Assembly: GCA_029263395.1 (NCBI GenBank)
Contig: JAJCXO010000263.1
Span: forward strand, 1 to 64,000
Origin: Acidobacteriota bacterium
GTDB lineage: Bacteria; Acidobacteriota; Thermoanaerobaculia; Multivoradales; J023
DNA length: 64,000 nucleotides
Direction: 5' to 3'
In this document: positions 1-63,178 of the stretch, piece by piece
Position numbering within the stretch: position 1 is the first letter of the stretch
How the letters are laid out: each line of letters opens with the position of its first letter
Made by a program: the position numbers and the translations under genes
Notes under the pieces: generated by a model
Told to the model about the DNA's origin: nothing
The model's database searches: none
What the model saw: the letters and a program-made list of their open reading frames with translations, nothing else

Positions 1-1815
1 GGCGGCAACGGCTCCGACTCGGTGAACGCCGACGCCCAGGACGGTTCGGGCAACTGCAACGCCAACTTTTCGACGCCAACCGATGGCGGCAACCCGCGGA
101 TGCAGATGTACACCTGCACCAACGCCTCGCCAACGCGCGACGGCGACCTGGACAATGGCGTGATCGTGCACGAGTACGGCCACGGGATCTCGATCCGTCA
201 GGTCGGCGGCCCGGGCAACTCGAGTTGTCTCAACAACAACCAGCAGGCAGGTGAAGGTTGGAGCGACCTGTTGGCTCTGATCTACACCCATGAGCCGGGC
301 GATGCCGGCACCGATTCCCGCGGTATCGGCACCTACCTCTTCGGTCAGGCGGCCAACGGTCCTGGTATCCGTGACCTGCCTTACTCCACCAATTCATCGG
401 TCAACAACTGGACCTACTCATCGATCGGCGGCGCCGGCATTCCGCACGGTATCGGCTCGCGCTGGGCGCAGGGTGCCTGGGAGGTCTACTGGGCGTTGGT
501 CGACAAGTGGGGCTTCGAGGGCGACCTCCACAACTTCAACATCAACGACGCCAACGAGGCGGGCAACAAGCGCGCCCTCTACTACATCAACGAAGGCCTC
601 AAGAACACCGCCTGCTCGCCGACCTTCATCAACAACCGCGATGGCATTATCCAGGCCGCCACCTCAAGCTTCAACGGTGAAGACGTGTGCACGATCTGGG
701 AAGCCTTCGCGGCCTTTGGCCTCGGCACCAACGCCTCCACCGGAGGCTCGAACAGCACCACGGCGTCCAATGGTTTCAACATCCCGGCAGCCTGCGACGG
801 TCCGCCGCCGCCATCCGATTGCCCGGCTGGCTCCCTCGACTTCAACAGTCTGTCGTTGACGTCGTACTCGAACCAGAACGCTTCGAACCAGACCTCGGTT
901 GCCAATGGTGGTGACACGCTGCAAATGACGGGTAACACCTGGGTACGCACCACCCAGAGTTTCAACATCACCCCCAATACTGTCGTCGAGTTCGACTACT
1001 CCTCGACCGACCAGGGTGAGATCCATGCCATCGGTTTTGATCCCGACGACACCTTGAACAACCAAGCCGCACACTTCCAGATCTGGGGTAACCAGAACTG
1101 GACCGGCACCGGTAACGTCGGCCGTACCGCGCAGCAGTACAACGGCAGCGGCAACAACCAGTCGTTCACGATTCCGGTGGGTCAGACCTACACCGGTAGC
1201 CGTCGCTTGGTGTTCACCAACGACAACGATGCAGGGACCGGCAACGGCAACTTCAGCTGCGTCCGGGTCTTCGAGTCCGGTGGCGGCGGTGGTGGCTGCA
1301 CCGTCGACGACGATTTCGAGGGTGGCGCACCGGCGTGGACCAACGACGGCGCCTCAACCTGCACCACCGGCGCCTACACGGTGGGCAATCCGACCAACCC
1401 CGGCGGCGGCGTCCAGATCGTGGGCTCGAACTCGGGCACCAACTCGATCTTCACTGCGGTCAACACCAGTGCTGGCAACGCCGATGTCGACGGTGGCAAC
1501 TGCATCCTCGGCTCACCGACCTGGGCGGTCACCAACGCATCAACTCTGTCGGTCGCCTACTGGCATGGCCAGCGCGACAACGGTGACGATGCGAGCGGCG
1601 ACTTCTTCCGGCTCGAGTACTCCACCAACGGTGGCACGAGTTGGACAACCCTGAGGTCGAACGGAGACACCGCCTCGACTCCCGCCTGGAGCACCGCGAC
1701 AGCGCAGATCCCGGCGGGCTCGAACGCCCGGTTGCGGGTCCAGTGCTCCGATGGCGCCGGCCCGGGAGACCTGGTCGAGTGTGGCATCGACGACGTGTCG
1801 ATCTGTGACAACTAG
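1..1815 (+). CDS. M36 (fungalysin-like) secreted metalloprotease, 5' end cut by the window
   Basis: The reading frame is open from base 1, so this is the 3' part (604 codons) of a longer gene; the first ATG, at 22, is internal. It begins inside the peptidase domain. The zinc motif HEYGHGIS starts at codon 57, and a downstream [10 protein letters not shown] supplies the expected glutamate ligand. After the catalytic domain there is a beta-rich domain of about 150 residues (starting CPAGSLDFNS), a Gly-rich linker, and a C-terminal module of about 170 residues with paired cysteines and the motif AYWHGQRDNGDDA. The same module ends the next gene, so the two are tandem paralogues. Known of the family: M36 enzymes are secreted zinc endopeptidases made with an FTP propeptide. 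The propeptide and signal peptide would lie left of the window. Family assignment is firm; substrate is unknown. Confidence 0.93.
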   Translation, partial: GGNGSDSVNADAQDGSGNCNANFSTPTDGGNPRMQMYTCTNASPTRDGDLDNGVIVHEYGHGISIRQVGGPGNSSCLNNNQQAGEGWSDLLALIYTHEPGDAGTDSRGIGTYLFGQAANGPGIRDLPYSTNSSVNNWTYSSIGGAGIPHGIGSRWAQGAWEVYWALVDKWGFEGDLHNFNINDANEAGNKRALYYINEGLKNTACSPTFINNRDGIIQAATSSFNGEDVCTIWEAFAAFGLGTNASTGGSNSTTASNGFNIPAACDGPPPPSDCPAGSLDFNSLSLTSYSNQNASNQTSVANGGDTLQMTGNTWVRTTQSFNITPNTVVEFDYSSTDQGEIHAIGFDPDDTLNNQAAHFQIWGNQNWTGTGNVGRTAQQYNGSGNNQSFTIPVGQTYTGSRRLVFTNDNDAGTGNGNFSCVRVFESGGGGGGCTVDDDFEGGAPAWTNDGASTCTTGAYTVGNPTNPGGGVQIVGSNSGTNSIFTAVNTSAGNADVDGGNCILGSPTWAVTNASTLSVAYWHGQRDNGDDASGDFFRLEYSTNGGTSWTTLRSNGDTASTPAWSTATAQIPAGSNARLRVQCSDGAGPGDLVECGIDDVSICDN

Positions 1816-2097
1816 TCGAACCGTTGACGGTCGGTCCGGAGACTCGGCGTCTTGGTAGGCGCCGGTCCTCGGGCCGGGTCACCCGTCTCCCTTTTCAGAC
1901 TGGCCTCTCGGCATCTCATGCCGAGAGGTCCGTTGTTGTTTCTTGGTTGCCGCCTGCCGGTTGCATCGCCGGCAAACGAGAGCGAAGAAATTTGATATTT
2001 GGAGCGATTCACTTTAGCGGTGTCACTTCCCCTTTGATCCCGAGGCTAGACCATATGACTGAGATAAGATTCCCTGAAACCACGATAGTTGAGTCGA
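1816..2097. other. Intergenic region between the two M36 genes
   Basis: No gene is supported here. The region holds the 1904-1928 terminator hairpin and a second perfect 6-bp hairpin (TGCCGG/CCGGCA, 1955-1974). It leads into the structured leader of the next gene, annotated separately. No convincing -35/-10 pair was found, although the next gene's promoter probably lies between 1975 and 2095. Confidence 0.5.
1904..1928 (+). terminator. Perfect 11-bp hairpin, likely terminator of the first M36 gene
   Basis: CCTCTCGGCAT (1904-1914) pairs perfectly with ATGCCGAGAGG (1918-1928) across a CTC loop. A T-rich stretch with interruptions follows (1931-1944). It lies 88 bases past the stop codon. The same stem sequence reappears, with another loop, in the leader of the next gene. 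Confidence 0.7.
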
Positions 2098-2199
2098 CCT
2101 TTCGGCAGTCGTGCCGAGAGGTTTGCCCTGGAGAGGCCCGGATGCCGGAGTGATCGGGTTGCCAAGAACATTGGCATTCCGGGCCGCTGGTTGGAAACC
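2098..2199 (+). promoter_or_regulatory. Structured 5' leader of the second M36 gene (candidate cis-regulatory RNA)
   Basis: Seen directly: a 10-bp hairpin CCTTTCGGCA/TGCCGAGAGG (2098-2107 with 2112-2121, one T-G pair). A 5-bp closing helix GGTTT/AAACC (2120-2124 with 2195-2199) overlaps it at GG. A long helix GGCCCGGATGCC/GGCATTCCGGGCC (2135-2146 with 2173-2185) has a single bulge. A competing hairpin TGCCAA/TTGGCA (2160-2165 with 2171-2176) uses part of the same right arm. The ribosome binding site lies about 12 bases downstream of the closing helix. Inference: the two folds are mutually exclusive and could control translation or transcription. It matches no riboswitch class I recognise. Confidence 0.45.
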
Positions 2200-2223
2200 T
2201 CACAACCTGCAAAGGAGAAGTCG

Positions 2224-5200
2224 ATGCAGAGTTCAACCCGCAAGAGATCCTTCTTAGGCATCCTGACCATTGCTGTGCTGGTCGCGAGTGGAGTCGGCGC
2301 TGGCCCGCACCAGCCGGCTTTCGATGAGGGGCGCAATTTCGACGCCCGCATCGAACACAATCAAGGTTTCTTGGCATCCAAGAGCGCCACCCAGTCCGCC
2401 GCCTTGGAAGTGATGCGAAGCAAGGTTCGCGATCTCGATATCACCTTGGATGACACGCTCGGGGTCACTCGCTCACTCTCCAACAAGACGGGTTTTCTCA
2501 CCCAAGTCCCCAGCAAAGCAGGGGGCGGACCGGTGGAGATGTCGCTGGCTTTCGTCAAAGCCCAACTGCCGGCGTTGGGGCTCAGCGCTGCCGATCTCGA
2601 AGGATACGAGGTCACGGACTCGGTCTACTCCAAGCTCAGCGGTATCACCCACGTCTATCTTCGACAGCAGCATCTGGGCCTGCCGGTGTACAACGCGCAG
2701 TTGCACATCAACATCCATGACGACGGCAGAATCCTCAGCGTCAACAACGCCTTTGTGCCCAACGTCGGGTTGAACCGCAAGAGTCTTGCTCCGACCCTGA
2801 GTGCTGCTGAAGCCGTCGCCGCCGCGGGTCGCCATCTCGGCGTCGCGCTCGAGGTGATGCCGAAGGCTCTCAGCACTGAAACGGGTCTCGCTCAACTCAC
2901 CCACATGGAGGTCAAGCAGCTCTCCAGCTCGCCGATCGAAGCCCAGCTCATGTGGCTGCCAATCCGTGGTAGTGAAGTGCGTCTGGTTTGGAATTTCTCG
3001 CTCCAGACACCTGACTCACTGCACTGGTACGACATGACAGTTGATGCCGCCTCCGGCGACGTCTGGACCCGCTTCGACTGGGTTGCGTCGGATTCCTTCC
3101 GGGTTTACCCCGAGCCGGTAGAGAGCCCGCTGCACACCAGCCCGTTACCGCCTTCGGACGCGCGCGTGCTGATCGTCAATCCGGAAGATGCCACCGCGTC
3201 CCCCAACGATTGGTTCTCGGGCTCCGGCATCATGTCCGGCAACAACGTCCATGCCTGTGCCGACGTCAACGCCAACAACGTCTGCGATTCGCCGGAGCCG
3301 ACCTGTTCCGGTGGAACCTGTGATTTTGCAATCGACTTGACAGCGCAGCCGGGAGCTTCCCAGGGTGCGGCGATCACCAACCTCTTCTACTGGAACAACA
3401 TTATCCATGACATCCAATACCAATATGGTTTTGATGAAGTTGGGGGCAACTTCCAGGAGAACAACTTCGGCCGTGGTGGCGCTGGTTCAGACTCGGTCAA
3501 CGCCGATGCTCAGGACACCTCGTTCCCGAGCCCTTGTAACGCCAACTTCGGCACTCCAGCCGATGGTGGCAACCCGCGCATGCAGATGTTCCTGTGCGAC
3601 AACACAACTCCGGATCGGGACGGCGACTACGACAATGGGGTGATTGTGCATGAGTACGGTCACGGCATCTCGAACCGTCAGGTCGGCGGTCCTTCCAACG
3701 TCAACTGCTTGGGCAACAGTCAGCAGGCAGGTGAAGGTTGGAGTGACTTGCTCGCCCTGATGTACACCGGCGAAACAGGTGATGCCGGCACAGACGTCCG
3801 CGGCATCGGCGCCTACCTCTTCGGCACCTCGTTGACCACCGGCATCCGGGACTTGCCCTACTCGACCAACAACGCGGTCAACAACTGGACCTATGAGTCG
3901 ATCAGCGGCGCCGGTATTCCTCATGGGGTCGGCTCACGTTGGGCACAGGCCGGTTGGGAAGCCTATTGGGCCCTGGTCGACAAATGGGGCTTTGAGCAAG
4001 ACCTGATCAACTTTGACATCAACGACCCCAACGAAGCCGGCAACAAGCGGGCGATGTATTACATCAACGAAGGCTTGAAGAACACCGCGTGCTCGCCGAC
4101 CTTCGTCGACAATCGCAACGGCATCATCCAAGCTGCGGCGTCGAGCTTCGGCGGTGAGGATGTGTGCACCTTATGGGAGGCTTTTGCCGCCTTTGGCCTT
4201 GGCGAAAACGCCGTCTCCGGTGGCTCCAACTCCACCAATCCAACCAACGGTTTTGCCGTGCCGTCGTCGTGCACCGATCCGCCGCCGGAATGCACCAACG
4301 AGATCAGCGGTCAGGACTTCGAGTCCGGCGCCGGCGGTTGGACCCAAGGTGCGGACACCTGCACCACCGGTTCGTTCATCGTCGGCACGCCCGACGCCAC
4401 AGCCTGGCAGGTTGGTGGCGGCAACCCGGGGCAAGCGTTCTTCACTCAGAACAACGCGGGCGGCATCGGTACTGACGACGTCGACGGTGGCACTTGCGAA
4501 GCTCTTTCGCCGGTGGTCAGCGGCGGCGGCAATGACCTCACCGTGATCCTCGACTACTACCATGGTCAACGTGACGCCGGTGACGATGCCGGCGACGGCT
4601 TCACCATCGAAGTGCTCAACAACGGCTCGGTGGTCGACACCATGGTGTCGATCGGCGATGTCACCAACAGCGCTTTCTGGTCCACTGCGTTCACGACCGT
4701 TGCCAACGCTGGCAACGTCCAGTTGCGGGTGCGGGCGACCGACGCAGCAGCCGGCGGCGACATCGTCGAAGCTGGCCTCGACAACATCCAATTCTGTGGC
4801 GCCGGTGGCGGCGGGGGTTGCACCAGCGACGCCCAATGTAACGATGGTGCGTTCTGCAACGGCGTCGAGACCTGCAACATCGGCACCGGAGTCTGTGAAG
4901 CCGGTACCCCGATCGCTTGTGGCGATGGTGTGAGCTGCACCGTCGACGCTTGTAACGAGGCGACCGATTCCTGTGACAACACGCCGAGCAACGCCCTGTG
5001 CGACAACGGTGCGTTCTGTGATGGCGCCGAGACCTGCGACGCCATCAACGACTGTCAGGCTGGCAGCGCAGTGCAATGTGGCGACGGTGTGAGCTGCACC
5101 GACGACTCCTGCAACGAGTTGACCGATTCCTGCGACAACACACCGAACGACGGCCTGTGCGACAACGGTCTGTTCTGCGATGGCTCGGAAACCTGCGATG

Positions 5201-6333
5201 CGGTCAACGACTGTCAAGCAGGCACCAACCCATGCTCGGGCTCGCAGACCTGTAACGAGACCACCAACGCCTGTGAAGGCACCGGTGGCTGTTTGTTGGA
5301 GAACGACTTCGAAGGCGGCGCGGGCGGCTGGACCGGGAATACCGGCAGCTGCACCACCGGCGACTTCGTGGTCGGCACGCCGGACGCCACCGCCTGGCAG
5401 TTGGGCTCGGGTAATCCGGGCCAGGCCTTCTTCACCGCCCCGAATCCGGGTGGCATCGGCAGCAACGATGTGGATGGTGGCACCTGTGTGGCGCTCTCAC
5501 CATCGGTCAACGCCAACGGTGAAGCCGCGGTTTCTGTCTCGCTCGACTACTACCATGGTCAGCGTGACGCCGGTGATGACGCCAATGATGGTTTCACCAT
5601 CGAGGTGCTCAACAACGGCTCGGTGGTCGACACCATCGTTTCGATCGGCGACGTCACCACCAACCCGGCGTGGACAACCGCGTCGACCACCGTCAGTAAC
5701 CCTGGCAACATCCAACTGCGGGTGTCGGCGAGTGATGCTGCGGGTCCCGGTGACATCGTCGAGGCCGGTATCGACAACGTGCAAGTCTGCCCGACCACAC
5801 CGCCATCCTGCGTTGTGGACGATGACTTCGAAGGCGGCGCACCGGATTGGGACAACGATCCGGCCAGCACCTGCACCACCGGTGACTACGTGACCGGCAA
5901 CCCGACCCAGCAGGTCAACGGAGGTGTCACCACCCAGGTTGGCGGCGCCAACTCCGGCACCACCGCCATCTTCTCGGCGACCAACACCAGTGCCGGCGTC
6001 AACGACATCGACGGCGGCAACTGCATCCTGACCTCGCCGACGTGGGGTGTGTCCCAGGCGTCGACCCTGTCCGTCGCCTACTTCCACGGCCAGCGGGACA
6101 CCGGCGGTGACGCTGGTGACTTCTTCCTCCTCGAGTATTCCCTCAATGGCGGAAGTACCTGGAACACCCTGGCCTCCAACGGAGACACCACCTCGAATGC
6201 AGCCTGGACCAACGCGACAGCGCAAATCCCGGCCGGTTCAACGGTGCAGATCCGCATGCAGGCTTCCGACGGTACGGCCAGCGGCGACCTCGTCGAAGCA
6301 GGACTCGACGACGTGTCGATCTGCTCCAACTAG
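2224..6333 (+). CDS. M36 (fungalysin-like) secreted metalloprotease with Cys-rich and triple C-terminal modules
   Basis: The start is the ATG at 2224, which follows AAAGGAGAAG and opens a clear signal peptide; the frame is open further upstream without such signals. The product has 1369 residues. An FTP/PepSY-like propeptide covers roughly residues 60-290. The M36 catalytic domain runs to about residue 690, with HEYGH at 476-480 and the third zinc ligand E504 in GEGWSD. Then come a jelly-roll-like module (about 690-860), three Cys-rich repeats of about 45 residues with the pattern CDNGxFCDGxETCD (866-1020), and two more modules (about 1023-1195 and 1196-1369). All three modules share a YxHGQRDxGxDA core. 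The enzyme is probably exported and either cell-surface bound or released. The module repeats explain the recombination debris downstream. The M36 call is firm; the role of the C-terminal modules (binding or sorting) is inferred. Confidence 0.96.
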
Positions 6334-6375
6334 CCGCCTGAATCTCAGGGCCGCAAGGCTCTGAGCGGATCGATC

Positions 6376-6407
6376 AACCCCCGGTGTTTCGGCGCCGGGG
6401 GTTTTTT
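6376..6407 (+). terminator. Intrinsic terminator of the second M36 gene
   Basis: AACCCCCGGTG pairs with CGCCGGGGGTT (one wobble) and six T residues follow. It lies 43 bases past the stop. A near copy (7325-7353) follows the protease remnant, and its core (6382-6397) is repeated exactly at 6977-6992. Confidence 0.9.
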
Positions 6408-6563
6408 GGTGTGCGGGACGCCACCTGCCTCATAGGGCAGCTTGCCTGCTCCCTGGCGCGGGCACCAAGAACACCCGAAGAGACGGCGGACCCTGACATC
6501 TTGGAAACTAGACTCATCAGATTGCAAGGTAACGTCAATGCATCGAACTCGCGAGGTGAGCTC

Positions 6564-6976: not shown

Positions 6977-7281
6977 CGGTGTTTCGGCGCCGAGCACCTG
7001 CACCACCGGCGCTTACATCACCGGTAACCCAACGCAGCAGGTCAACTGTGGGTGACGATGCCGGTGACTTCTTCCTCCTCGGATATTCGCTCAACGGTGG
7101 AAGTAGCTGGAACACCCTGGCCTCCAACGGAGACGCTACCTCGAACGCAGCCTGGACCCATGCGACGGCGCCGATCCCGGCCGGCTCGACAGTGCAGATC
7201 CGTATGCAGGCCGCCGACGCCACTGGTGGCGACGACCTGATCGAAGCAGGCCTCGACGACGTGTCGATCTGCTCGAACTAG
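6977..7281 (+). pseudogene. Decayed third copy of the M36 C-terminal module
   Basis: Bases 6977-6992 are identical to the core of the upstream terminator (6382-6397). Bases 6993-7046 then match 5866-5919 of the M36 gene, encoding [18 protein letters not shown]. The match jumps to 7051-7281, which corresponds to 6105-6333 and encodes the last 76 or so residues of the module, ending DDVSICSN. The offsets (1127, then 946) show a 181-base internal deletion that breaks the frame, with a stop just after the first segment. It cannot be expressed as a secreted module: it has no signal peptide and no catalytic domain. It is a remnant, and evidence for a former third tandem unit or an unequal crossover. 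Confidence 0.88.
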
Positions 7282-7324
7282 CTGCCTGAAGGCTCAGAGC
7301 CGCAAGGTTCTGGGTTGAGCGATC

Positions 7325-7353
7325 AACCCCCGGTGCTTCGGTGCCGGGGGTTT
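7325..7353 (+). terminator. Duplicated intrinsic terminator with TTCG loop
   Basis: AACCCCCGGTGC-TTCG-GTGCCGGGGGTTT, with two wobble pairs, is a near copy of the terminator at 6376-6407. The bases between the stop and the hairpin (7282-7324) also match 6334-6375, so gene end and terminator were duplicated together. Confidence 0.85.
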
Positions 7354-48811: not shown

Positions 48812-50029
48812 ATGAATGTTCTGATGTTCTCGCCCGGGTTTCCGGCCGAGATGCCCTACTTCACCCGTGGGTTGGCGCAGGTTGGAGCGCGGGTACTTGG
48901 ACTCGGCGATCAGCCGGTGGAGATGTTGCCGGAGGCTGCCCGTTCGAGCCTGTCTGACTATCTGCGGGTGCGCAATCTCTTCGACGAGGTTGCGGTGGTC
49001 GAGGAGGTGAAACGCTGGGCACAACGGGTGAAAATCGACCGGGTCGAGTGTTTGTGGGAGCCAGGGATGCTGCTCGCCGCCCGTCTACGCGAGGCCCTCG
49101 GATTGCCGGGCTTGACTGTGGCGGAGACGATTCCCTTCCGCGACAAGTCGAGTATGAAGCAGGTGTTGGACGATGCGGGGATCCGCACCCCTCGCCATCG
49201 GCGCGCAACGACCCAGGATCAGGTACGGCAAGGCGTCGAGGAGATCGGCTACCCAATCTGCATCAAGCCGATCGCCGGCGCGGGCTCGGCCGACACTTAC
49301 CGGGTCGACGACGACGAGCAGCTCGAGGATGTGCTGGCAAAAACCGGCCACGTTCCGGAGGTCAGCGTCGAAGAGTTCATCGAAGGTGAAGAGTACACCT
49401 TCGACACGATTTGCTCGGGTGGTCAGATTCACTTCTATAACGTTGCCTGGTATCGACCGCGACCTTTGATCGCCCGCTCTGAGGAGTGGATCAGCCCGCA
49501 AACCATCAGCTTGCGGAACGTCGAGGACCCGGTTTTGGCCCCAGGGGTCGAGATGGGCAAGGCGGTCTTGAAGGCCTTGGGCTTCCGGACCGGCTTCACC
49601 CATATGGAGTGGTTCCTGAAAGCCGATGGCGAAGCCGTCTTCGGTGAGATCGGCGCTCGCCCTCCCGGGGCACGCTCCGTCGACATCATGAATTACGCCA
49701 ACGACATCGATGTTTATGCGGGCTGGGCGGAGGCGGTTTGTCACGGTCGGTTCAGTCAAACAATCGAACGCAAGTACAACGCCGCGGTGATCTTCAAGCG
49801 TGCCCAGGGCCAGGGGCGGATACGCCGCATCATTGGCCTCGAGCCTCTGCTGCACGAGTTTGGTGACTCGGTGGCTTGTGTGGACCTGTTGCCGATCGGC
49901 GCTTCCCGCCGTAATTGGCGGGCGACCTTGATCTCCGATGGACATCTTGTTGTCCGCCATCGTGATCTCGAAACCACGATGGTGATGGCCGACAAGGTCG
50001 GAACGGACCTGCAGATGTATGCTGGCTAG
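48812..50029 (+). CDS. ATP-grasp domain carboxylate-amine ligase-like enzyme (paralogue)
   Basis: The 405-residue protein follows a strong AAGGAG site. It has a Rossmann-like N-terminus (NVLMFSPGFPAEMPYFTRG). The ATP-grasp motifs are YPICIKPIAGAGSADTYRV, VEEFIEGEEYTFDTICSGG, THMEWFLKADGEAVFGEIGA and RPPGARSVDIMNY. It resembles 7456-8676 along its whole length. Such enzymes ligate a carboxylate to an amine; substrate cannot be predicted. It is monocistronic and convergent with the lipase gene. Confidence 0.87.
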   Translation: MNVLMFSPGFPAEMPYFTRGLAQVGARVLGLGDQPVEMLPEAARSSLSDYLRVRNLFDEVAVVEEVKRWAQRVKIDRVECLWEPGMLLAARLREALGLPGLTVAETIPFRDKSSMKQVLDDAGIRTPRHRRATTQDQVRQGVEEIGYPICIKPIAGAGSADTYRVDDDEQLEDVLAKTGHVPEVSVEEFIEGEEYTFDTICSGGQIHFYNVAWYRPRPLIARSEEWISPQTISLRNVEDPVLAPGVEMGKAVLKALGFRTGFTHMEWFLKADGEAVFGEIGARPPGARSVDIMNYANDIDVYAGWAEAVCHGRFSQTIERKYNAAVIFKRAQGQGRIRRIIGLEPLLHEFGDSVACVDLLPIGASRRNWRATLISDGHLVVRHRDLETTMVMADKVGTDLQMYAG

Positions 50030-50032
50030 TTG

Positions 50033-50073
50033 GGCTGACCGAGTGGCGGATCTCATGTCCGTCTTGGTCAGCC
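50033..50073. terminator. Hairpin between convergent ATP-grasp and lipase genes
   Basis: GGCTGACC (50033-50040) and GGTCAGCC (50066-50073) form a perfect 8-bp outer stem, with an inner CGGA/TCCG stem around a 7-base loop. There is no T-run, so termination is plausible but not proven. Confidence 0.5.
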
Positions 50074-50096
50074 GAACACGGCCACTGCATCGCAGC

Positions 50097-51521
50097 CTAT
50101 GGCCGCTTGGCTTCCAGCAGCCAATAGACGACACGGTCGGCAAAAATCGGGTCGAGGGACATCCGGCTGTGCTTGCGGGGGATGAAGACGGTGGCTTTGA
50201 AAGCGATCGGCGAAACAGGTCTGATCGCAACACCGTCGGACGGTGTTGCAGCGAGTTCTTGGTGTAACAAGGCACTGCTGCGTAATACGCTACCGTCCCC
50301 CCGATCGTAGGTGAGAATCTCTACCTCACCGGTTTCGGCATCAATTGCCAGAGTAGCAGGTGTCGGCATCGAATCGCCGGCGATCAGGAAAATGTCAGTG
50401 CCTTCTGGCGGCGTGGCTGGTAAATCGAGGGCGCGCTGGAACTGATCCGCGAGACGCAACATTCGGTGCTGGTAGTCGAGCGCGATGCGACGTCGCGCCT
50501 CGGCAGCCGGTACGTCGGGCAGCAGCCATTGCAGCATGGTGTCTTTGTCACGGGCCGCCAATCCCCAATCGTGGCGTTCCCACAAGTCCGGGTCGAGTAA
50601 CGAACCTGCATTGCGGGAGGGATCTTCGGCATCAACATAGGCGTCGTGGCGGGCCCGCGGAAACAATTGGTAACCCGAGGGAAACGTGCCGTTGAGCAAG
50701 GCGTCGTAAAACGGAAAGCCCGGTGCGTGGCGCACACCCTCGATCATGTTGAGGGCGGCCTTGACGGATCCGGCGTTGGGTGGTGCCACCAGGATCACTC
50801 GCCCGATGTGACGGGCTCCTTCCCACGTCAGCTCTGGCAGTGAGCCGTCAGCAGGCAGGGGTTGCGGGCCGTAGCGCAGATAGTAGCGAGTCAGGAGGCC
50901 GCCCATCGAATGGGCGATGATGTCGAAACGGATCTCCTGTTCAGGCTCGTCGTTGAGCTGGTGCTGCTGACGGCAGTAGTTTGTCTTTTCGCGAATGAAG
51001 GCGTGTAGGCGCTGGGCATTTGCCGCGTTGTCGAGCCGCCAGTCATAGTCGAATTGAAAGGAGTTGAGATCTTGGCCGTCAAAGTCGTCGCCCAATCGTC
51101 GGCTGAGGTCTTCGTCGCGATAGCCCGCGGCGCTGAGGGTGCGCAAAATCTTGAAGTACGGCCTCAGTCGCAAGGAGACGTGGCGAAAGCGAAAGTGATC
51201 AAGCACGCCATCGGGTTGCACATTGGGAGACGCCACATCGTCGCGCATCGAGCGGGCGATAATCCGCGCGCCCTCGGGCGTGCTGGGTGCCGCGTAGTGG
51301 CCGCCGACCTCTCCCCACACCACCCGGCCGGATTCTGCATCCACTAACCGAGAGCCGAGAAATCCCGGGATGACGATTACCGGGTTGCGTTCAGGAAAGC
51401 GTTTGGCCGCAACGGGATCAAAGAAGTCCCTGAGATCAACCGGCGTCAAGGTCGCCAGACAGCCGGTCAACAAGACGGCAGTCGCGCCAGCAAGCAGCGC
51501 TTTCTGGGTCCACTGGCTCAC
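50097..51521 (-). CDS. LCAT/lecithin:cholesterol acyltransferase-like lipase (lipoprotein)
   Basis: The 474-residue protein starts with GTG at 51521 and carries a lipobox (AVLLTGC, cysteine at residue 21). The alpha/beta-hydrolase core has NPVIVIPGFLGSRLVD and the nucleophile elbow AHSMGG at S205. LCAT-type family members are phospholipases or acyltransferases. The catalytic Asp and His were not pinned down. It is probably anchored in the periplasm. It starts two bases after the exonuclease stop on the same strand, so it is likely co-transcribed. Confidence 0.85.
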   Translation of the reverse strand: MSQWTQKALLAGATAVLLTGCLATLTPVDLRDFFDPVAAKRFPERNPVIVIPGFLGSRLVDAESGRVVWGEVGGHYAAPSTPEGARIIARSMRDDVASPNVQPDGVLDHFRFRHVSLRLRPYFKILRTLSAAGYRDEDLSRRLGDDFDGQDLNSFQFDYDWRLDNAANAQRLHAFIREKTNYCRQQHQLNDEPEQEIRFDIIAHSMGGLLTRYYLRYGPQPLPADGSLPELTWEGARHIGRVILVAPPNAGSVKAALNMIEGVRHAPGFPFYDALLNGTFPSGYQLFPRARHDAYVDAEDPSRNAGSLLDPDLWERHDWGLAARDKDTMLQWLLPDVPAAEARRRIALDYQHRMLRLADQFQRALDLPATPPEGTDIFLIAGDSMPTPATLAIDAETGEVEILTYDRGDGSVLRSSALLHQELAATPSDGVAIRPVSPIAFKATVFIPRKHSRMSLDPIFADRVVYWLLEAKRP

Positions 51522-61436: not shown

Positions 61437-61554
61437 CGCATCCTCGGGGCAGTGATTCAACTCGGGCGTACTGCCCGGTCACTGTGACCCTAGCGAGGAG
61501 ATGTCGTCTGGATTTGACGACTTGTCACAGGATGTAACGTCTTGGCTTCATCGC

Positions 61555-61614
61555 TGAGTCGCCACTCAATGAGTCGCCACTCAGTGAGTCTGGACTCAGT
61601 GAGTCGTAACTCTG
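61555..61614. repeat. Four 15-bp palindromic tandem repeats between divergent genes
   Basis: TGAGTCGCCACTCAA, TGAGTCGCCACTCAG, TGAGTCTGGACTCAG and TGAGTCGTAACTCTG run without a gap (61555-61569, 61570-61584, 61585-61599, 61600-61614). Each contains GAGT-N4-ACTC and the joints form ACTCA-G-TGAGT palindromes. The array ends 29 bases before the ATPase start. It is a candidate operator cluster. Confidence 0.9.
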
Positions 61615-61643
61615 TAAGATGGATAGGTGAAGGAGACTGAGTC

Positions 61644-63057: not shown

Positions 63058-63178
63058 CGCCCCGGGTTGACACCCGAGGCAATCGGATGGCGCCCTCCGG
63101 GCTCAAGAGTTCGGAGTCTGTCAATCAGAGCCCGTAGGGCGACACGCGGTAGCCCAGGGTGTAAACCCTGGGTGCTGG
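63058..63178. repeat. Composite palindromic (BIME/REP-like) element
   Basis: Two arms of about 48 bases (63058-63105 and 63129-63177) are imperfect inverted copies around a 24-base centre. Each arm has its own hairpins: GCCCCGGGT/ACCCGAGGC (63059-63080) and GCCC-TCC-GGGC on the left; GCCC-GTA-GGGC (63130-63140) and CCCAGGGT-GTAA-ACCCTGGG on the right. It lies between convergent genes. It resembles bacterial interspersed mosaic elements but its family is not known to me. Confidence 0.75.

What the first reader, a model, noticed from the sequence alone, without database searches (positions are those of the whole stretch)
2098..2223. Structured, switch-like leader before the second M36 protease
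A hairpin, a closing helix, a 12-bp bulged stem and a competing hairpin share arms within 100 bases, directly upstream of the ribosome binding site. The GGCA arm (2173-2176) can pair in either of two stems. The first hairpin also repeats the stem of the upstream terminator (1904-1928). Such mutually exclusive folds are typical of riboswitches or protein-responsive leaders, and I recognise no known class.
Basis: partly seen in the sequence, partly recalled or inferred. Interest (0 to 1): 0.62.

Follow-up and report, generated by a model that had tools for sequence, protein, structure and literature searches.

The report
Folded mRNA leader of a protease
The stretch before this secreted-protease gene does fold into stable RNA hairpins, and a sister gene in the same genome keeps much of that fold, but the proposed on/off switch is not kept and the ribosome-binding site looks open, so it is most likely an ordinary folded mRNA leader of no known class.

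Summary
One homologous leader exists, before a sister M36 gene on contig C286 of the same genome (80%). A fold common to both has three two-sided compensatory pairs, with mixed statistics. The last 37 bases before the start codon are identical; upstream spacer is 68% identical. Nothing convincing in 71 other order-level genomes or Rfam. The switch fails in the sister leader: competing hairpin 2 of 6 pairs broken, closing helix 1 of 7 broken and 4.8 kcal/mol above its best fold. The ribosome-binding site is predicted rather open (paired 0.39; mean of 82 control leaders 0.63), with no temperature response, no leader terminator, no csrA. Best reading: a real structured 5' leader leaving the start site open, perhaps stabilising the mRNA or binding an unidentified factor. 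Incidental: a covarying hairpin hiding the Shine-Dalgarno site before one group of M36 genes in Myxococcaceae.

The parts
2065..2070 (+). possible -10 box TAAGAT in a conserved block (about 2055-2073); would put a transcript start near 2077 and a leader of about 147 nt
   Evidence: kept in the C286 alignment; no sigma-70 promoter reached the scan threshold, so inferred only
2093..2097 (+). 5' arm of a possible outer helix with 2221-2225 (includes the A and T of the start codon)
   Evidence: in the two-sequence consensus fold; 4 of 5 pairs never vary, so no covariation test
2098..2121 (+). hairpin 1, 10 bp, loop GUCG
   Evidence: -16.4 kcal/mol alone; in C286 one two-sided change (2100:2119), two one-sided G-U changes, and 2103:2116 and 2107:2112 unpaired
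2118..2124 (+). 5' arm of the alternative closing helix with 2195-2201
   Evidence: 7 bp in the window, 0.4 kcal/mol above the minimum; 6 of 7 pairs in C286, 4.8 kcal/mol above
2132..2188 (+). bulged stem 2
   Evidence: 2131-2188 alone -31.3 kcal/mol, 0 of 200 shuffles; lower stem kept in C286 with a two-sided change 2137:2183 and G-U changes; apex rearranged
2160..2176 (+). competing hairpin (2160-2165 with 2171-2176)
   Evidence: fold 1.3 kcal/mol above the minimum in the window; 2 of 6 pairs broken in C286
2187..2223 (+). block identical in both leaders, with hairpin 3 (2189-2207) and the RBS
   Evidence: 37 of 37 identical to C286 against 67.7% in the spacer 1936-2092
2212..2217 (+). Shine-Dalgarno AAGGAG
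   Evidence: sequence; mean paired probability 0.39 against a mean of 0.63 for 82 control leaders
2224..6333 (+). second M36 fungalysin protease gene
   Evidence: PF02128, E 9.2e-112; FTP propeptide, E 3.9e-13
1902..1930 (+). intrinsic-terminator-like hairpin after the first M36 gene; its 3' arm recurs in hairpin 1

Best explanation
2093-2223 is the folded 5' untranslated leader of the second M36 protease mRNA: hairpin 1, bulged stem 2 and hairpin 3 in a row before a largely open Shine-Dalgarno site. Shown by computation: the fold, a partly conserved version of it in one sister leader, and 37 identical bases before the start codon. Inferred: it acts in cis, shielding the mRNA 5' end from decay and keeping the start site clear, possibly with a factor that recognises the conserved hairpin-3 block. 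No switching step is shown.
For: Folding z -3.7 to -4.3. The sister leader on C286 folds too (z -2.4, 8 of 500 shuffles as good). Consensus fold -44.5 kcal/mol, z -3.2, 0 of 300 column shuffles as good; in that shared structure 43 pairs, 3 changed on both sides, 7 on one side, none broken. The fold predicted from C286 alone keeps 43 of 47 pairs in the window (P 0.009 and 0.015 in two nulls). 37 of 37 bases 2187-2223 identical where the spacer is 67.7% and third codon positions of the gene 65% identical. 19 substitutions in 2110-2223 fall 7, 9, 3 on codon positions 1, 2, 3, so the leader is not coding. SD rather open. M36 leaders as a group fold better than leaders of neighbouring genes (median z -2.2, n 23, against -0.44, n 28, P 0.001).
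Against: Only two sequences. The fold predicted from the window alone is not kept better than chance (41 of 48 pairs, P 0.13 and 0.28; compensatory pairs P 0.03 and 0.09). Dealing out the 3' letters of the shared structure anew reaches the observed covariation in 55 of 500 shuffles, and that structure was chosen to fit both. In the sliding two-locus scan the leader scores z -3.2 framed at 2093 but -1.7 at 2101, where the minus strand scores -2.9, so the strand is not settled; the neighbouring 3' UTR and terminator score -7.2. The group comparison counts several related Myxococcus species and automatic start calls. No detectable similarity to the first-gene leader of C286. Nothing here measures mRNA stability or factor binding.
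Confidence: 0.5

Rival explanations
1. A ligand- or protein-responsive switch: the closing helix, bulged stem and competing hairpin exchange arms and so open or close the start site.
For: Near-isoenergetic alternatives in the window (0.4 and 1.3 kcal/mol); an outer helix reaching the start codon and a CCU:AGG pairing with the SD are possible in both leaders; 37-nt identical block.
Against: The alternatives are not kept in C286; SD more open than the control mean; no leader terminator; no Rfam hit; no convincing match in 71 other order-level genomes.
Confidence: 0.15
2. Hairpin-rich spacer without leader-specific function: terminator-type hairpins, one of them copied, drifting in a duplicated locus.
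For: Hairpin 1 repeats the terminator arm and both differ in the same way between the loci. The M36 sequences here are followed by stable hairpins. The 3' UTR outscores the leader.
Against: It does not explain 37 of 37 identity next to the start codon or the two-sided change in stem 2.
Confidence: 0.2
3. DNA-level palindromic operator: hairpin 1 and the terminator palindrome are two sites for a dimeric regulator.
For: Two near-identical palindromes with starts 194 bp apart; minus-strand consensus scores are not clearly lower.
Against: The terminator palindrome of C286 lacks 6 bases of one arm, changing half-site spacing; all 7 one-sided changes in the shared structure make or unmake G-U pairs, which pair in RNA of the + strand only, though that structure was chosen to fit.
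Confidence: 0.08
4. RNA thermometer, or an SD-hiding hairpin like that of one group of Myxococcaceae M36 leaders.
For: A short CCU:AGG pairing with the SD is possible in both leaders.
Against: Predicted SD pairing stays 0.32-0.43 from 10 to 55 C; the Myxococcaceae model finds nothing in the window at E up to 1.
Confidence: 0.04

Closest known systems
Structured mRNA 5' leaders with an open ribosome-binding site (ompA type; recalled, not looked up here)
   Same: stable hairpins upstream, SD left largely single-stranded
   Different: no sequence relation tested; no stability data
Riboswitches and protein-responsive leaders
   Same: folded leader directly before an RBS, alternative folds in one sequence
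   Different: no Rfam match, alternatives not kept in the one relative, no expression platform shown
SD-hiding hairpin of one Myxococcaceae M36 leader group (seen here)
   Same: same protease family, hairpin directly before the start
   Different: SD inside the stem there, largely open here; its model does not match the window

Membership tests
known riboswitch class | match to a curated covariance model | tested here: not met
   none at gathering score in the leader; none at E up to 10 for 1800-2400
riboswitch (any) | mutually exclusive folds kept in relatives | tested here: not met
   one relative only; pairs broken, and the closing-helix fold 4.8 kcal/mol worse there
riboswitch (any) | ligand binding | not testable with these tools
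   needs in-line probing
transcription attenuator | terminator within the leader | tested here: not met
   consensus scan of 1700-2400 finds one terminator-like site, at 1902-1930, upstream of the leader
RNA thermometer | SD paired when cold and released by warming | tested here: not met
   flat 0.32-0.43 from 10 to 55 C; a prediction only
CsrA-regulated leader | genome encodes CsrA | tested here: not met
   PF02599: 0 matches in the own genome, 96.29% complete; 3 of 14 control genomes ring
conserved structured leader (generic) | stems kept by compensatory change | tested here: inconclusive
   3 two-sided pairs in two sequences; P 0.009-0.015 from the C286 fold, 0.13-0.28 from the window fold; 55 of 500 shuffles as good

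The most novel reading that the evidence does not exclude
The whole spacer between the two proteases is one regulated unit: the terminator of gene 1 and hairpin 1 of gene 2 have arms that differ in concert between the loci and can swap partners (1904-1913 is perfectly complementary to 2112-2121), so that read-through from gene 1, or a factor that binds both hairpins and the conserved hairpin-3 block, sets translation of gene 2.
Probability: 0.06. Interest if true: 0.65.

Novelty: new member of a known kind. Interest (0 to 1): 0.27.

Why it matters
It describes an unclassified structured leader of a secreted protease gene and separates what the sequence supports (a shared fold and a strictly conserved start-site block) from what it does not (a switch). 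The hunt for relatives also turned up a covarying SD-hiding hairpin before one group of M36 genes in Myxococcaceae, with no Rfam match in the two loci scanned; that one can be tested in cultivable laboratory strains.

Tried and rejected
Coding extension: the frame is open upstream of ATG 2224, but of 19 substitutions in 2110-2223 only 3 fall on third positions and a 1-base gap at 2109 breaks the frame. Thermometer and CsrA: not supported. SD sequestration as the default state: my own idea from the consensus fold, dropped after comparison with 82 control leaders. Other leaders: blastn in 59 genomes, own included, gave three short matches outside the own genome, E 9e-4 to 6e-3; each overlaps open frames of 100 codons or more. 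Model R1 gave nothing better than E 0.3 besides the two leaders in 7 family genomes, own included, and two weak hits (E 0.02 and 0.05) in 72 order genomes, own included; both overlap open frames of over 150 codons on both strands, so I take them for chance, without proof. The C286 first-gene leader (L028) looked similar by eye but scored no better than shuffles. The hairpin-3 pattern with up to 3 mismatches: only the two copies in 7 family genomes, own included. The window's class and phylum were not searched with R1. Literature: (listings and abstract starts only, capped at 10, 12, 8, 10 and 6 rows) and one passage of PMC2864571 showed no M36 leader RNA; subscription journals are not covered.

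Full report
What is there. The window's second M36 (fungalysin) gene starts at ATG 2224 behind AAGGAG 2212-2217. Upstream, 2098-2223 folds at -58.3 kcal/mol, z -3.69, 0 of 200 shuffles as good; 2093-2229 gives -63.3, z -4.24, 0 of 500. As a yardstick, 512 stretches of the window, both strands, have mean z -0.29; the leader scores -4.32, 2 stretches score lower and 5 reach -4 or lower. The genome is probably a member of Acidobacteriota: contigs of two genomes of its family have the same lengths as contigs of MAGs titled Acidobacteriota OFTM328 and Thermoanaerobaculia Co_bin.310.

One relative. In its own 10.7 Mb genome the leader has one homologue, on contig C286 upstream of a sister M36 gene (80% identity, E 6.2e-45). 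The surrounding block is duplicated: 84% over about 7.0 kb, from the window's first base (inside the first M36 gene) through the second M36 gene to about 6990. Third codon positions of the second gene are 65% identical, spacer 1936-2092 67.7%, leader 2093-2186 72.3%, and 2187-2223 37 of 37. At the spacer rate 37 of 37 has a chance of about 5e-7, at 85%, the identity of the whole gene, 0.002; the stretch was picked after seeing the alignment. Whether C286 is a second locus of the same strain or a stray contig of a related strain cannot be told.

Is the fold kept? A consensus fold has 43 pairs, none broken, three changed on both sides (2100:2119, 2137:2183, 2151:2168) and seven on one side; but it was chosen to fit both, and 55 of 500 shuffles reach its covariation. 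Folds predicted from one sequence alone give a mixed answer: the C286 fold keeps 43 of 47 pairs in the window (P 0.009 and 0.015 for two nulls), the window fold only 41 of 48 in C286 (P 0.13 and 0.28). The consensus energy beats 300 of 300 column shuffles, z -3.2. In a sliding scan of the two-locus alignment the leader reaches -3.2 framed at 2093 and -3.1 at 2130, but -1.7 at 2101, where the minus strand scores -2.9; the 3' UTR and terminator of the first gene reach -7.2. I conclude that a shared fold is likely, on moderate evidence.

Is it a switch? In the window the closing-helix fold lies 0.4 and the competing-hairpin fold 1.3 kcal/mol above the minimum. In C286 the closing helix has one of seven pairs broken and its fold lies 4.8 kcal/mol above the minimum, and the competing hairpin has two of six pairs broken (the energy printed for that broken hairpin forces the four remaining pairs and is not a fair figure, so I use only the pair count). 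The SD is paired with probability 0.39 in the window and 0.34 in C286, against a mean of 0.63 (lower quartile 0.47) for 82 control leaders, 29 of them in this window. Predicted SD pairing is flat from 10 to 55 C. The scan finds no terminator in the leader, the genome search finds no csrA, and Rfam gives nothing at E up to 10. The switch is therefore not supported, though two sequences cannot exclude it.

How wide? Blastn in 59 genomes, the leader model R1 in 7 family genomes and 72 order-level genomes, and the hairpin-3 pattern in 7 family genomes, each count including the own genome, found nothing convincing outside the two loci. Of 289 candidate stretches encoding M36 relatives in public genomes, 80 loci were kept; 37 of those 80, 15 M36 loci and the window were searched with R1, and apart from the two leaders and the opposite strand of the same two places (E 0.03 to 0.06) nothing came below E 1. 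As a group, M36 leaders fold better than neighbouring genes' leaders (median z -2.2, n 23, against -0.44, n 28, Mann-Whitney P 0.001), but many of these are related Myxococcus species.

A lead found on the way. In Myxococcaceae, leaders of one M36 group hide the SD in a long hairpin: 12 of 12 group-A leaders have SD pairing 0.71-0.99, mean 0.89 against 0.63 in controls, P 8e-5; the other M36 groups do not exceed the controls (group B 0.66, n 4, P 0.54; other Acidobacteriota-type 0.58, n 12, P 0.77; Steroidobacter 0.63, n 4, P 0.57). A model built from three group-A leaders finds 14 of 14 leaders of that group and a near paralogue at the start site, E 0.013 or better. In the fitted alignment 90.2% of cells pair and 9 of 24 pairs show two-sided changes, more than in any of 500 shuffles; 8 of the 9 lie in the upper stems and 1 in the helix that holds the SD. 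Against it: an unfitted MAFFT alignment of ten of them gives a consensus of only -4.3 kcal/mol, and an unguided consensus on the fitted alignment recovers mainly the apical stem. Two of these loci show no Rfam match there. One record in the set, L066, is titled Comamonas but reappears among the genomes listed as family of the Myxococcus genome G072. The model does not match the window, so this is a separate element.

Most likely mechanism. A folded 5' untranslated region, with a transcript start perhaps near 2077 (inferred from a conserved TAAGAT; no promoter scan hit), whose stems shield the message and leave the start site open, perhaps with a factor at the conserved hairpin-3 block. The fold and the conservation are computed; stabilisation and factor binding are inferred.

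Noticed in passing
L056:2914-2985 and 13 further M36 leaders (L057, L058, L061, L066-L070, L085, L145, L147, L153, L156): A hairpin that encloses the Shine-Dalgarno site (3' arm GCAGGAGCACGACATG the same in all 14; 5' arm mostly UUYCU, GUCCU in L145 and L147) before M36 genes of Myxococcaceae; 9 of 24 pairs with two-sided changes on a fitted alignment. No Rfam match there in the two loci scanned.
   Followed up: partly
window 1810-1940: The 3' UTR of the first M36 gene with its terminator folds more strongly than the leader (z -5.7; two-locus consensus z -7.2 for 1801-1931) and holds a stretch around CTTGGTAGGCGCCGG identical in C286.
   Followed up: partly
window 1919-1929 and 2112-2122, and the same places in C286: The 3' arms of the terminator and of leader hairpin 1 are identical within each locus (11 bases) and differ at the same three positions between the loci: concerted change of two hairpins 193 nt apart.
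   Followed up: no
window 6344-6408 and about 7293-7352: Two near-copies of a double hairpin (small GC hairpin plus a CCCCCGGTG...CGGGGG terminator) after M36 sequences; 6979-7281 looks like an M36 C-terminal fragment.
   Followed up: no
window 63129-63172 (-): Acido-Lenti-1 RNA (RF01687), 37.5 bits against a cut-off of 37.
   Followed up: no
window 49980-50120 (+): Very stable fold, z -4.8, 0 of 200 shuffles as good.
   Followed up: no
window 61495-61635 (-): Run of short GACTCA/TGAGTC-type repeats that fold on themselves, z -3.3, 1 of 200 shuffles as good.
   Followed up: no
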